In this document: positions 59,609 to 62,998 of the stretch, piece after piece
How positions within the stretch are numbered: position 1 is the first letter of the stretch
How the letters are laid out: every line of letters begins with the position of its first letter
Assembly: GCF_900187385.1 (NCBI RefSeq)
Contig: NZ_FYEY01000001.1
Coordinates: 7,006,001 to 7,070,000 of the forward strand
Reading direction: 5' to 3'
DNA: 64,000 nt
Source of the DNA: Streptomyces sp. 2114.4
GTDB taxonomy: Bacteria > Actinomycetota > Actinomycetes > Streptomycetales > Streptomycetaceae
Notes under the pieces: model-generated
The model's input: only the letters and a program-made list of their open reading frames with translations
Databases searched by the model: none
What the model was told of the DNA's origin: nothing
Position numbers and translations under genes: made by a program

Positions 59609-59638
59609 GTGACCAGCCTCTCGCACCCCCGCTAGAGT
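59609..59638 (+). promoter_or_regulatory. Candidate promoter of the Mrr-TerD gene
   Basis: -35 GTGACC (59609-59614), 18-base spacer and -10 TAGAGT (59633-59638). The start point would fall inside the inverted repeat. Confidence 0.5.
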
Positions 59639-59662
59639 TTCACCCAACAACGCAGGTGAAAC
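59637..59662 (+). promoter_or_regulatory. Candidate operator overlapping the start point of the Mrr-TerD gene
   Basis: GTTTCACC (59637-59644) and GGTGAAAC (59655-59662), perfect 8-base arms, 10-base centre. It overlaps the -10 box, the usual place for a repressor site. Confidence 0.6.
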
Positions 59663-59716
59663 CGCTTCCACAGGGTTCCGGGGGCAGTTCACCCCGGGGG
59701 GAGGACACACAGCGAT

Positions 59717-61795
59717 ATGAGCCGCCGTTCCCATGGATTAATGGCCGTCTGGGCCGAGGCGCAGCGTCAGCAGCAGCGCCAGCAGGAAGCCCAGCGCCGC
59801 GCGCGAGCACAGCAGCAGCGCGACCAGGAACGGCAGGCACGGGACGCCGAACGCGCCATGGCGCGGATGCACCGTGAGCGGCAGGCGGCCTACCGGCAGC
59901 AACGCGAGGCCGACGCCCGCCGGCGGACCGAGGAACTTGACGCCCGCGTCACCGCCCTGACCGGCCTGCTCGCCGACGGCTGCCGCGCCCCCGCCTTCTC
60001 CGCCGCCGCGCTGCTGCGCCCCGAGCGGATCGAGGAGTTCGCGCCCGGCGCCCTCGCCACGCCGGTACCGATGCCCGACCCGGCCCGCTATCACGCGCCG
60101 ACGGGCGGCTGGCACCTCGGCGCCCGCCGGGACCGTGCCCAGGAGGAGGCCCGCGCCCGCTACGAGCAGGACTGGTACACGGCGCAGGCAGCGGAGAGCC
60201 GCCGGCAGGCCCAACTCGCCGCCTACCGGCAGCAGTACGACCAGTGGGCCGCGGGCGCCCTGGCTGAGATCCGGCAGCACAACTCCGGCATCGAGGAGTT
60301 GCTGTCGGGCCTGCGCGCCGGCGACGCGGACGCGGCCGTCGAGTACTTCTCCGCCGCGCTGTACTCCTCCACGGCCTGGCCGGAGGGCTTTCCCCGGCAG
60401 ATCGCGGCGGCCTACGACCCGACGGCCCGTCAGCTCGTCCTGGACTGGGAGCTCCCGGGCTACGACATCGTCCCGGAGACCAAGTCCGTCCGCTATATGC
60501 CCACCGCTGACCAGGAGAAGGAGACCGCCAGGCCGGCCACGCAGCGACGCGCGCTCTACCGCGAAGTGCTGGCCCAGAGCGTGCTGCTGGTGCTGCGCGA
60601 CCTCTTCGCCGCCGATGGTTACGGCACGCTGGACTCGGTGGCGCTGAACGGATTCGTGGACGATGTGGACCCGGTGACCGGCCGCCCGGCCCAGGTGTAT
60701 CTCGCGACCGTGATGGCTCCCCGCAGTTCCTTCGACACCTTCCGCCTTGAGCAGGTCAGCGCGGTGGAATGCCTGACCGACGGGCTGCGCGGGCAGCTCG
60801 CCGCCCGCCCCGACCAGCGGACCGCGGTCCGCCCGGTGCGCCTGCCGGCAGACGTGGGCGGCGGGGTCGTCTCGCACGGCGCGGAGGGCGAACCGGATCT
60901 CTACGAGATGGATCCGATCGCGTTCGAGAACCTGATCGCCGAGCTGTTCCGCGCCATGGGCATGCAGGCCGTGACCACCCAGCGTTCCGGCGACGGCGGG
61001 GTCGACGTGGATGCGCTGGACCCCGATCCGATCCGCGGCGGCAAGATCATCGTGCAGGTCAAGCGCTACCGCAACACCGTCCCGCCGACCGCCGTCCGCG
61101 ACCTGTACGGCACCGTCCAGTCCGAAGGCGCCAACAAGGGCGTGCTGGTGACCACCTCCCGGTTCGGTCCCGGCGCCCACACCTTCGCCAACGGCAAACC
61201 CCTCAGCCTCATCGCCGGCCCCGAACTCGTCGATCTGCTCGGCCGTTACGGGCTGCGCGGACGGCTCGGCGGGGACGCCCCGTCCGGCCCGTCCGCCACC
61301 GAGGAGGCGGCGGACCACAACATCCTCGGTATGAACTGGTCCGGGGAGGTCGCCCTCGATGTCTGTGCCCTGGTGTGCAAGGGCGCCGACGTGCTCAGCG
61401 ACGATCACTTCGTCTTCTACAACAACCCCCGCAGTCCCGACGGTTCGGTCCGGATGCTGCCCGGCTTCGCCCCCGACCGGGCCGCGATGCAGGTGCGGTT
61501 CGAGGCGCTCCCCCCGGCCGCCGACCGGCTGGTCCTGGTCGCGGCGATCGACCCCCAGGTCAACCCCGACGCCGATCTCTCCGGCTTCACCGACGCCCGG
61601 ATACGTCTGCTCGACGCCTCGGGGGAGGAGCTGGGCACCCTGGAGGTCTCGGACGGACGGCAGGGCGAGACCGCGCTGGTCCTCGGATCGTTCCGCCAAC
61701 GGGAGGGCGGCGACTGGGACTTCGTGATCGGCGGCAAGGGCTTTCCCGGCGGCCTGGAAGCGCTGGTGCAGGAGTACGGCATCGAGGTCGCCTGA
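59717..61795 (+). CDS. Coiled-coil / Mrr nuclease / TerD fusion protein
   Basis: A 692-residue three-part protein. Residues about 8-80 are a long charged coiled coil of Gln, Arg, Glu and Ala. A middle region (about 85-380) has no family I recognise. Residues about 395-520 are an Mrr-type restriction-endonuclease domain: FENLIAELFRAMGM, GVDVDA near 428 and IIVQVKRY with the QxK motif near 447, a PD-(D/E)xK variant. Residues about 530-690 are a TerD domain with LDVCALVCKGADVLSDDHFV, FYNNPRSPDGSVRML. TerD domains bind calcium and belong to tellurite and stress systems. The ATG at 59717 has GGAGG about 12 bases upstream, rather far. It probably recognises and cuts DNA, with the TerD part as a sensor or membrane anchor. 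Confidence 0.88.
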   Translation: MSRRSHGLMAVWAEAQRQQQRQQEAQRRARAQQQRDQERQARDAERAMARMHRERQAAYRQQREADARRRTEELDARVTALTGLLADGCRAPAFSAAALLRPERIEEFAPGALATPVPMPDPARYHAPTGGWHLGARRDRAQEEARARYEQDWYTAQAAESRRQAQLAAYRQQYDQWAAGALAEIRQHNSGIEELLSGLRAGDADAAVEYFSAALYSSTAWPEGFPRQIAAAYDPTARQLVLDWELPGYDIVPETKSVRYMPTADQEKETARPATQRRALYREVLAQSVLLVLRDLFAADGYGTLDSVALNGFVDDVDPVTGRPAQVYLATVMAPRSSFDTFRLEQVSAVECLTDGLRGQLAARPDQRTAVRPVRLPADVGGGVVSHGAEGEPDLYEMDPIAFENLIAELFRAMGMQAVTTQRSGDGGVDVDALDPDPIRGGKIIVQVKRYRNTVPPTAVRDLYGTVQSEGANKGVLVTTSRFGPGAHTFANGKPLSLIAGPELVDLLGRYGLRGRLGGDAPSGPSATEEAADHNILGMNWSGEVALDVCALVCKGADVLSDDHFVFYNNPRSPDGSVRMLPGFAPDRAAMQVRFEALPPAADRLVLVAAIDPQVNPDADLSGFTDARIRLLDASGEELGTLEVSDGRQGETALVLGSFRQREGGDWDFVIGGKGFPGGLEALVQEYGIEVA

Positions 61796-61933
61796 AGGCG
61801 GCTTTCCGGGCCGGGGCGTGGCCCTGGGCGGGTCGGCCGGCACCGATGGACGCCATGGAGACAGGGGAGGTCGTGGACGGATGGAGGCCATGAAAACGTG
61901 GTGGCCAGGGAGGGAGGGGTGAGGCTCCCCAAC

Positions 61934-62998
61934 ATGTCCCATGGCGCTCGTCTGACCGCCCACAGCGACGTTTCCACCTCCCTGGCCCTTGTGAGTGATC
62001 GCGGACTGCGCGAGCTCGTGGACGCGGCCGCGCCGCTCGGCTCCGGCATCGGTGGAAAATCGGCGCTGCTGGAGGTTTCCGGAACCCCGGTCTTCGTGAA
62101 GCAGGTGTCCCTGACCGATCGGGAGAGACAGCCGGAACACGTCCGGTCCACGGCAAACGTGTTCGGAGTGCCGCCCTTCCTCCAGTACGGCCTCGGCAGC
62201 CCGGGATTCGGGGCCTGGCGGGAACTGGCCGTGCACACCATGACGACGAACTGGGTACTGGCGGGGGAGTACGAGGGCTTCCCCCTGATGTATCACTGGC
62301 GGGTGCTGCCGGAGCCGGCGAGGCCGCTTCCCGGGGAACTGGCGGACGTGGAAAAGGCCGTCGCCTACTGGGGCGGCGGACCGGAGGTGCGCAGCCGTAT
62401 CGAAGGGCTCCAGGGGTCGTCGGCGACGGTCGCGCTGTTCCTGGAGTACATCCCGCAGAACCTGCACGACTGGATGGGCATGCAGTTCCAAGCCGGTGAC
62501 GAGGCGGCCGGCCGGGCATGCGCCATGGTCGAGAGGGAGCTGGAAGCCGGCACCTCGTTCATGAACGCACGCGGACTCCTGCACTTCGACGCACACTTCG
62601 AGAACATCCTGACCGACGGCCGGCGCCTCTTCTTCACGGACTACGGCCTCGCGGTCTCCTCCCGGTTCGAGCTGTCGCCGGACGAGGCCGGCTTCTTCGA
62701 ACGGCATCGGACCTATGACCGTTGCTACACCGTCACGTACCTGGTGCGCTGGCTGGTCACCGCTCTGTACGGGTACAGCAGGGACGAGCGCGACGCGTGG
62801 GTGCGCGTCTGCGCCGGCGGCGAGCCGCCCTCGGGAATCCCGGTCCCGGCCGCGGAGTTCATCGCCCGGCATGCGCCGCTCGCCGCGGTGATGGCGGAGT
62901 TCTTCCGCAAGGTGCACAAGGAGAGCAGACAGACCCCGTACCCGCTGGAGCAGATCCGCCGGGTGGCCGGCGGGAGGTACGGCGCGCCCCTCGGCTGA
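61934..62998 (+). CDS. Protein kinase-fold protein
   Basis: A 354-residue protein of the kinase fold. The ATP Lys is probably in TPVFVKQVSL near residue 53, the catalytic loop reads HFDAHFENILTD near 218, and the metal motif is DYG in FTDYGLAV. The glycine-rich loop is weak, as in aminoglycoside and choline kinase types. The start may be ATG 61934, or GTG 61919 or 61898; 61934 is my choice. It lies 138 bases after the Mrr-TerD gene on the same strand and may be transcribed with it. The substrate could be a protein or a small molecule. Confidence 0.78.
   Translation: MSHGARLTAHSDVSTSLALVSDRGLRELVDAAAPLGSGIGGKSALLEVSGTPVFVKQVSLTDRERQPEHVRSTANVFGVPPFLQYGLGSPGFGAWRELAVHTMTTNWVLAGEYEGFPLMYHWRVLPEPARPLPGELADVEKAVAYWGGGPEVRSRIEGLQGSSATVALFLEYIPQNLHDWMGMQFQAGDEAAGRACAMVERELEAGTSFMNARGLLHFDAHFENILTDGRRLFFTDYGLAVSSRFELSPDEAGFFERHRTYDRCYTVTYLVRWLVTALYGYSRDERDAWVRVCAGGEPPSGIPVPAAEFIARHAPLAAVMAEFFRKVHKESRQTPYPLEQIRRVAGGRYGAPLG

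What the first reader, a model, noticed from the sequence alone, without database searches (positions are those of the whole stretch)
59609..62998. Three-domain coiled-coil/Mrr/TerD protein with its own operator and a kinase-fold neighbour
Seen: one 692-residue protein joins a charged coiled coil, an Mrr-type nuclease domain with intact GVDVDA and QVK motifs, and a C-terminal TerD domain; a perfect inverted repeat overlaps its -10 box and a kinase-fold gene follows on the same strand. Known: Ter proteins have been tied by genome comparison to metal/stress sensing, to DNA processing and to phosphatase-kinase partners. Inferred: a self-contained stress- or phage-responsive nuclease in which TerD senses a signal (calcium or membrane) and the kinase-like protein modifies it. 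The middle 300 residues match nothing I know.
Basis: partly seen in the sequence, partly recalled or inferred. Interest (0 to 1): 0.72.

Follow-up and report, generated by a model that had tools for sequence, protein, structure and literature searches.

The report
Single-gene nuclease fused to TerD
A DNA-cutting enzyme related to known anti-foreign-DNA nucleases has, in one family of soil bacteria, gained an extra stress-system domain (TerD) at its tail; the kinase-like gene beside it looks like a chance neighbour, and the fusion offers a way to ask what TerD domains do.

Summary
The protein is real: 692 aa, long coiled coil, an uncharacterised alpha/beta domain (198-382), an Mrr-type nuclease and a TerD domain, both over Pfam cut-off. 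E404, D430, Q447 and K449 are invariant in 81 of 81 close proteins and 16 of 16 rows of a divergent set. Coil, middle and Mrr match a catalogued 'type IV' nuclease profile; of 22 loci examined from outside Streptomycetaceae, 18 have a frame that ends 12-37 residues after Mrr. TerD is thus an add-on of one family, found in 42 of 121 Streptomyces genomes. The kinase-like gene is beside it in 0 of 80 related loci and occurs independently (15 genomes with both, 15.6 expected). The inverted repeat is not kept in relatives. The acidic loop of canonical TerD is missing in 81 of 81. Most likely it is a patchily carried single-gene restriction or defence nuclease whose TerD part regulates or docks it without the usual calcium site. 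Cleavage and any TerD role are untested; a defence-island signal was not clear. New variant of a known kind.

The parts
59633..59638 (+). -10-like box TAGAGT; a similar hexamer lies 40-100 bases before the start in most relatives
   Evidence: pattern only; a listed -10-like hexamer in 73 of 81 upstream regions
59637..59662 (.). perfect inverted repeat GTTTCACC-N10-GGTGAAAC; not conserved in relatives, so probably not a maintained operator
59717..61795 (+). TerD-fused Mrr-type nuclease, 692 aa
59738..60316 (+). two long predicted helices (residues 8-82 and 135-200) with a connecting stretch: coiled-coil arm
   Evidence: pLDDT mostly above 90
60308..60862 (+). uncharacterised alpha/beta domain (residues 198-382)
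   Evidence: predicted alone: pLDDT 92.7, pTM 0.87; no Pfam family over cut-off; no clear solved relative found
60902..61240 (+). Mrr_cat nuclease domain (396-508); E404, D430, Q447, K449 invariant
61337..61777 (+). TerD domain (541-687), without the acidic GDN...GDDE loop
61898..62998 (+). kinase-like ORF, 366 aa: most likely a chance neighbour, not part of the system

Best explanation
A solitary accessory nuclease of Streptomycetaceae that cuts foreign (or damaged) DNA. Shown by sequence or model: a long coiled-coil arm; an alpha/beta domain without a clear relative among solved structures; an Mrr-type nuclease with its catalytic residues kept; a C-terminal TerD domain without the usual calcium loop. 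Inferred: the arm makes it a dimer or oligomer; the alpha/beta domain reads the DNA target, as the N-terminal halves of Mrr and MspJI do; the nuclease cleaves; and TerD restrains, docks or triggers the enzyme by binding another protein (for example the cell's free TerD proteins) or the nucleoside-like ligand that the Ter system has been proposed to make.
For: Catalytic residues 81 of 81 and 16 of 16. PADLOC mREase_IV profile over residues 18-525. Nuclease domain like AF1548 (Z 13.1) and the modification-dependent AspBHI (Z 11.7, 123 residues, rmsd 2.9) and MspJI (Z 11.2, 122, 2.9). Patchy: 42 of 121 Streptomyces genomes. Many different neighbourhoods and no fixed neighbour in 80 loci. Three plasmid records with over 80% of the query, one with an AIPR-family and a PIN-domain gene within about 2.5 kb; TerD-less relatives on proteobacterial plasmids. 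TerD kept in fusions down to 42% identity in several genera.
Against: No clear defence-island signal: neighbours are mostly ordinary genes (control). Nothing here shows cleavage, a modified-base reader or a TerD ligand. The Ter cluster is 4.7 Mb away and its PRTase is nearly universal, so co-occurrence says nothing specific. TerD is not indispensable: in 6 of 121 genomes a 36-38% relative matches only up to the Mrr part, with frames of 508-598 aa in comparable cases, and L196 has no TerD in its frame (its match has a stop inside).
Confidence: 0.55

Rival explanations
1. Signal-gated suicide nuclease: TerD binds a nucleoside-like molecule made by the cell's Ter pathway during phage or metal stress and switches the Mrr nuclease on against any DNA.
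For: TerD has been proposed to recognise specialised nucleotide derivatives (passage of PMC7159879) and to sense the signal of Ter PRTases and HAD enzymes (passage of PMC7824862). PRTase_2 is in 119 of 121 Streptomyces genomes; this genome's cluster holds a PRTase_2/TRSP/StiP/PELOTA protein, a C-C bond lyase, TerC and TerD genes. The nuclease also resembles cyclic-oligonucleotide-gated Can2, Cdn1 and Card1 domains, at a common-fold level (Z 7-8.4).
Against: The signal is itself a hypothesis. No physical linkage between fusion and Ter cluster. TerD-less relatives persist.
Confidence: 0.2
2. Housekeeping DNA-repair or chromosome-maintenance nuclease, with TerD linking it to metal or oxidative stress.
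For: TerD families are tied to stress (recalled, and PMC7824862 passage). A RecQ-like helicase gene is next on the same strand in 11 of 80 loci (named from L031 alone).
Against: About a third of Streptomyces genomes have the gene; the RecQ-like neighbour is missing next door in 69 of 80 loci.
Confidence: 0.12
3. One reading: a two-gene module of a calcium- or membrane-sensing TerD nuclease and a kinase that modifies it, under its own operator.
For: The two genes lie 102 bp apart on one strand in the window.
Against: 0 of 80 related loci; independent distribution, 15 seen and 15.6 expected; loop absent; repeat not conserved.
Confidence: 0.03

Closest known systems
PADLOC mREase_IV profile PDLC03663 (relatives are annotated 'restriction endonuclease' in public records)
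   Same: coil, middle domain and Mrr nuclease, matched over residues 18-525 of the protein and 22-535 of 544 profile positions
   Different: the profile ends without TerD; 18 of 22 loci examined from outside Streptomycetaceae have frames ending 12-37 residues after Mrr
E. coli Mrr and S. coelicolor ScoA3Mrr (SCO4213)
   Same: Mrr_cat nuclease; type IV restriction (passages of PMC3874153)
   Different: E. coli Mrr has an N-terminal winged helix (same passages); whether SCO4213 is TerD-fused could not be checked, its sequence was not reached here
MspJI / AspBHI modification-dependent enzymes
   Same: nuclease domain fold, Z 11-12 over about 122 residues
   Different: their N-terminal half is SRA-like (PMC3874153 passages); the middle domain here gave no clear match to a solved structure
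TerD proteins (3ibz, 2kxt) and TerD parts of vWA-domain proteins
   Same: TerD fold, Z 19.1 over 159 residues to 3ibz; FVFYNN...DGSV core
   Different: acidic loop missing; fused to a nuclease
Ter-dependent systems (survey of Anantharaman et al. 2012: not held, known here only through later papers)
   Different: here one polypeptide, outside the genome's Ter cluster

Membership tests
Mrr_cat nuclease (PF04471) | score over curated cut-off | tested here: met
   113.9 bits against 21
Mrr_cat nuclease (PF04471) | catalytic E..D..QxK residues | tested here: met
   E404, D430, Q447, K449 in 81 of 81 and 16 of 16; assignment of the residues as catalytic is from the family motif (recalled; motif also in PMC3874153 passages)
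Mrr_cat nuclease (PF04471) | cleaves DNA | not testable with these tools
   needs purified protein
Type IV (modification-dependent) restriction enzyme | match to a type IV profile | tested here: met
   PDLC03663 E 1.1e-66; the profile's name is annotation, not proof of function
Type IV (modification-dependent) restriction enzyme | no cognate methyltransferase kept beside it | tested here: met
   no neighbour cluster is in more than 16 of 80 loci (own ORF caller and clustering); methyltransferases were not searched for by family
Type IV (modification-dependent) restriction enzyme | a domain that reads modified bases | tested here: inconclusive
   middle domain: best Z 7.3, no Foldseek E under 0.001
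Type IV (modification-dependent) restriction enzyme | restricts modified DNA | not testable with these tools
   bench assay
MspJI family | SRA-like N-terminal domain | tested here: inconclusive
   searches list no clear match of any kind for the middle domain
TerD (PF02342) | score over cut-off and TerD fold | tested here: met
   85.1 bits against 25.3; Z 19.1, 159 residues, rmsd 3.7 to 3ibz
TerD (PF02342), calcium-binding members | acidic GDN...GDDE loop (its calcium role recalled; calcium binding of 2kxt by its title) | tested here: not met
   0 of 81; present in L001, L002, L003 of the same genome
Ter operon system | gene lies with terC, PRTase or other ter genes | tested here: not met
   Ter cluster at 2.33-2.34 Mb, fusion at 7.07 Mb of the same contig
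   0 of 80 loci; together in 1 of 15 genomes with both
Defence-island gene | known defence genes enriched nearby | tested here: inconclusive
   129 of 258 neighbour ORFs scanned; at most 12 of 129 match a PADLOC model at 1e-8; control 1 of 44 window ORFs

The most novel reading that the evidence does not exclude
The TerD domain is a sensor for the nucleoside-like product of the Ter pathway, and this fusion is a ligand-gated anti-phage nuclease: a Ter-signal counterpart of CBASS and type III CRISPR accessory nucleases. TerD may even have been captured twice (one group's TerD falls outside the others; single origin not rejected).
Probability: 0.15. Interest if true: 0.82.

Novelty: new variant of a known kind. 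Interest (0 to 1): 0.45.

Why it matters
What TerD domains bind or do is, to my knowledge, still open. A TerD domain joined to an enzyme with an easily measured activity gives a direct read-out: remove TerD, or the cell's Ter pathway, and measure DNA cutting or phage plating. The middle domain, confidently modelled but without a clear solved relative in the lists obtained, is a candidate DNA- or signal-reading domain shared with plasmid-borne nucleases of proteobacteria.

Tried and rejected
Kinase partnership: rejected. Operator: rejected as a conserved feature. Calcium sensing by the canonical loop: rejected. Cysteines C550 and C554 of the TerD part, 81 of 81 in the first set, looked like a redox or metal site, but in the divergent set C550 is kept in 8 of 16 rows and C554 in 10 of 16 (one row has no TerD), so they are not a family-wide feature. 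Two separate TerD captures: in the TerD tree the L187 group stands apart from the other fusions, while the nuclease tree puts it beside L150/L189; a single clade is not rejected (p-AU 0.217, and 0.11 without two long rows). Defence island: no clear signal. Fold of the middle domain: best rows (sex-pheromone-precursor lipoproteins, Z 7.3) are at the level that the tool calls common; no SRA entry is in the listed rows. Phage copies: 7 of 50,697 phage records matched, none over 80% of the query. Viral contigs was not scanned. Literature: ten full-text searches gave no title or opened passage that describes this fusion; I opened only passages of a few papers. The 2012 Ter survey and the S. coelicolor restriction paper are not held (look-ups by DOIs recalled from memory), so they may describe it.

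Corrections and limits: one search printed wrong-strand frames for several loci, redone; one search aligned wrong-strand TerD segments, redone. Neighbour ORFs come from my own GC3-based caller and single-linkage clusters and may be wrong in places; the fusion itself was called in 77 of 80 loci there. In one search one locus (L082) was dropped, one ORF per cluster was kept, and a random half (129 of 258) was scanned. In one search four genomes count as fusions from two pieces lying in one open frame; TerD-less cases are judged there from match ends and frame lengths, not read one by one. The hairpin control is a plain letter shuffle and tests any stem in the zone, not the motif.
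Full report
Setting. Its protein is 92% identical to that of Streptomyces inhibens and 89% to S. lydicus (best segments), so the organism is a Streptomyces near these.

The observation. Mrr_cat scores 113.9 bits (cut-off 21) and TerD 85.1 bits (cut-off 25.3). The kinase-like ORF has only a weak Pkinase hit, 15.3 bits against 31.7.

What the protein is. PADLOC's profile PDLC03663 covers residues 18-525 (E 1.1e-66), so coil, 'unknown' middle and nuclease belong together as a catalogued type. 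A scan of genome contigs gave 129 relatives, of which the best 80 were kept; by record title all 80 are Streptomyces, Streptacidiphilus or Actinacidiphila (that tool finds close relatives and may leave out the window's own genome). None of the 80 has an internal stop; lengths are 678-724, and 1005 in L056, whose frame runs on. E404, D430, Q447 and K449 are invariant in the 81 proteins including the window's and in 16 of 16 rows of a divergent set made of 12 further fetched members, L093, L046, L150 and the window's protein.

Where the TerD came from. I examined 27 loci for middle + Mrr. Two gave no hit and three are Streptomycetaceae plasmids. Of the other 22 (20 distinct genes, since L015/L105 and L012/L106 are each one gene fetched twice), 18 have frames that end 12-37 residues after the Mrr match, with no room for TerD; one of these (L168) is a 93-residue frame only. 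Of the other four, L158, L162 and L163 end before or within Mrr, and L166 has a tail of about 119 residues that I did not identify. These loci come from another family of the order, other classes of the phylum and proteobacterial plasmids. Of the three Streptomycetaceae plasmids, L150 (Kitasatospora) and L151 (Streptomyces) carry TerD and L152 (Streptomyces) does not. In a phylum sample 16 of 396 genomes match the middle-domain profile at 1e-5, four of them in the window's genus. In 121 Streptomyces genomes the fusion is in 42 (38 as one match, 4 as two pieces in one frame); 6 genomes have a 36-38% relative whose match stops before TerD (one of them, G070, also has the fusion), and G013 has only a TerD remnant. 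In 61 genomes of the family 36 have a match, in 10 of 17 genera, partial and TerD-less matches included. Full-length matches go down to 42% identity (G537). The fusion is therefore an old add-on of this family.

Structure. The full model (pLDDT 87.2, pTM 0.52) shows helices 8-82 and 135-200, the alpha/beta domain, the nuclease and TerD; with this pTM the arrangement of the domains is not settled. The middle domain alone is confident (pLDDT 92.7, pTM 0.87) but has no clear solved relative in the lists: no Foldseek E under 0.001, best Z 7.3 over 99-104 residues at rmsd 3.5-3.8. The nuclease matches AF1548 (Z 13.1), AspBHI (11.7) and MspJI (11.2); TerD matches 3ibz at Z 19.1 over 159 residues, rmsd 3.7.

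The TerD domain. Aligned with eight TerD domains of the same genome, the fusion lacks the GDN...GDDE loop that L001, L002 and L003 have in full; a GDN motif is in 0 of 81 and a GxGDDE-like motif in 0 of 81. That this loop binds calcium is recalled; calcium binding of a canonical TerD is in the title of 2kxt. L008, another TerD of this genome, has the same short form. In the divergent set, by eye, no row shows the canonical loop, but L193 and L194 have a longer loop with a few acidic residues, and L196 has no TerD at all. Calcium sensing through the usual site is thus unlikely in the window's group and open in those two.

The neighbour and the repeat. tblastn of the kinase-like protein at E 1e-5 over the loci in hand hits only L013, the window's own stretch, and none of the 80 relatives (L026, L061, L062 and L080 have short downstream flanks). 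In the two 121-genome draws (same size, same listed handles, so apparently the same draw) the fusion is in 42, the kinase-like gene in 45, both in 15, with 15.6 expected if independent. Of the 15, the window's genome alone has them together; 7 have them on one contig at least 0.47 Mb apart and 7 on different contigs. No other neighbour is fixed: the commonest clusters are in 16 of 80 loci; a RecQ-like helicase is next on the same strand in 11 (named from L031). The repeat is perfect in the window only: none of the 80 relatives has TTTCACC in the 200 bases upstream and 6 have GGTGAAA. A -10-like hexamer is found in 73 of 81 upstream regions, and many relatives have a hairpin-forming CTGGTT...CCAG element 13 bases beyond it. 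A stem of 6 or more is found there in 49 of 62 regions, against a mean of 25 and a maximum of 34 in 20 letter shuffles. The window has a weak 5-pair form.

Defence setting. For: patchy occurrence, many different sites, plasmid copies (3 records with over 80% of the query), one with AIPR-family and PIN-domain genes within about 2.5 kb, and a proteobacterial relative between a DEAD/DEAH helicase and an NYN-domain gene. Against: of 129 neighbour ORFs scanned at most 12 match a PADLOC model at 1e-8 (three of nine examined account for 25 of the 34 matched models, several of them broad helicase or AAA models); the control was 1 of 44 ORFs of the window. The Pfam families shown for the neighbours (25 of 141) are mostly ordinary. 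The defence-island question stays open.

How it may work. Papers seen in passages propose that TerD recognises specialised nucleotide derivatives (PMC7159879) and senses the signal made by Ter PRTases and HAD enzymes (PMC7824862). PRTase_2 is in 119 of 121 Streptomyces genomes, and the window's genome holds a PRTase_2/TRSP/StiP/PELOTA protein, a C-C bond lyase, TerC and TerD genes in one stretch. A signal-gated nuclease is possible, but a nearly universal pathway is no specific evidence. The safer statement is a type IV-like nuclease with a regulatory or docking TerD domain that lacks the usual calcium loop. S. coelicolor SCO4213 (ScoA3Mrr) is listed as acting on m6A DNA (PMC3874153 passages) and lies in a small island (PMC1934918 passages); whether it is an orthologue could not be tested.

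Verdict. The fusion is a lineage-specific variant of a catalogued nuclease type, worth a bench test because it ties TerD to a measurable activity.

Noticed in passing
upstream regions of L030-L096; window 59639-59690: A hairpin-forming CTGGTT...CCAG element stands 13 bases after the -10-like box in many relatives, with changes on both sides in L077 and L093; stems of 6 or more in 49 of 62 regions against at most 34 in 20 shuffles. The window has only a weak form. Possibly a 5' UTR element or operator.
   Followed up: partly
L169:2525-3466 (genome G013): A TerD remnant of the fusion, 72% identical, with no nuclease part found in the 5 kb fetched: a decayed copy or a TerD-only derivative.
   Followed up: partly
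L187, L188, L193, L194, L195: Fusions whose TerD scores higher against free TerD proteins of the window's genome than against the window's fusion TerD, while the nuclease part groups with L150/L189: possible second TerD capture, single origin not rejected.
   Followed up: partly
L031, L047, L053, L057, L058, L063, L067, L073, L084, L087, L089: A gene cluster identified in L031 as RecQ-like helicase follows the fusion on the same strand in 11 of 80 loci; many of these share further neighbours.
   Followed up: partly
window 61898-62998: The kinase-like protein is an accessory family of its own: 45 of 121 Streptomyces genomes; 5 of 47 matches have a stop inside and 3 are partial.
   Followed up: partly
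L149:1930-7839 (Xanthomonas hortorum plasmid): A TerD-less relative sits between a DEAD/DEAH helicase gene and an NYN-domain gene, with a MobA/MobL gene nearby: possible multi-gene set.
   Followed up: no
L148:10319-11966 (Methylobacterium oryzae plasmid): A ThiF-family and a multiubiquitin-domain gene lie about 3 kb from a TerD-less relative.
   Followed up: no
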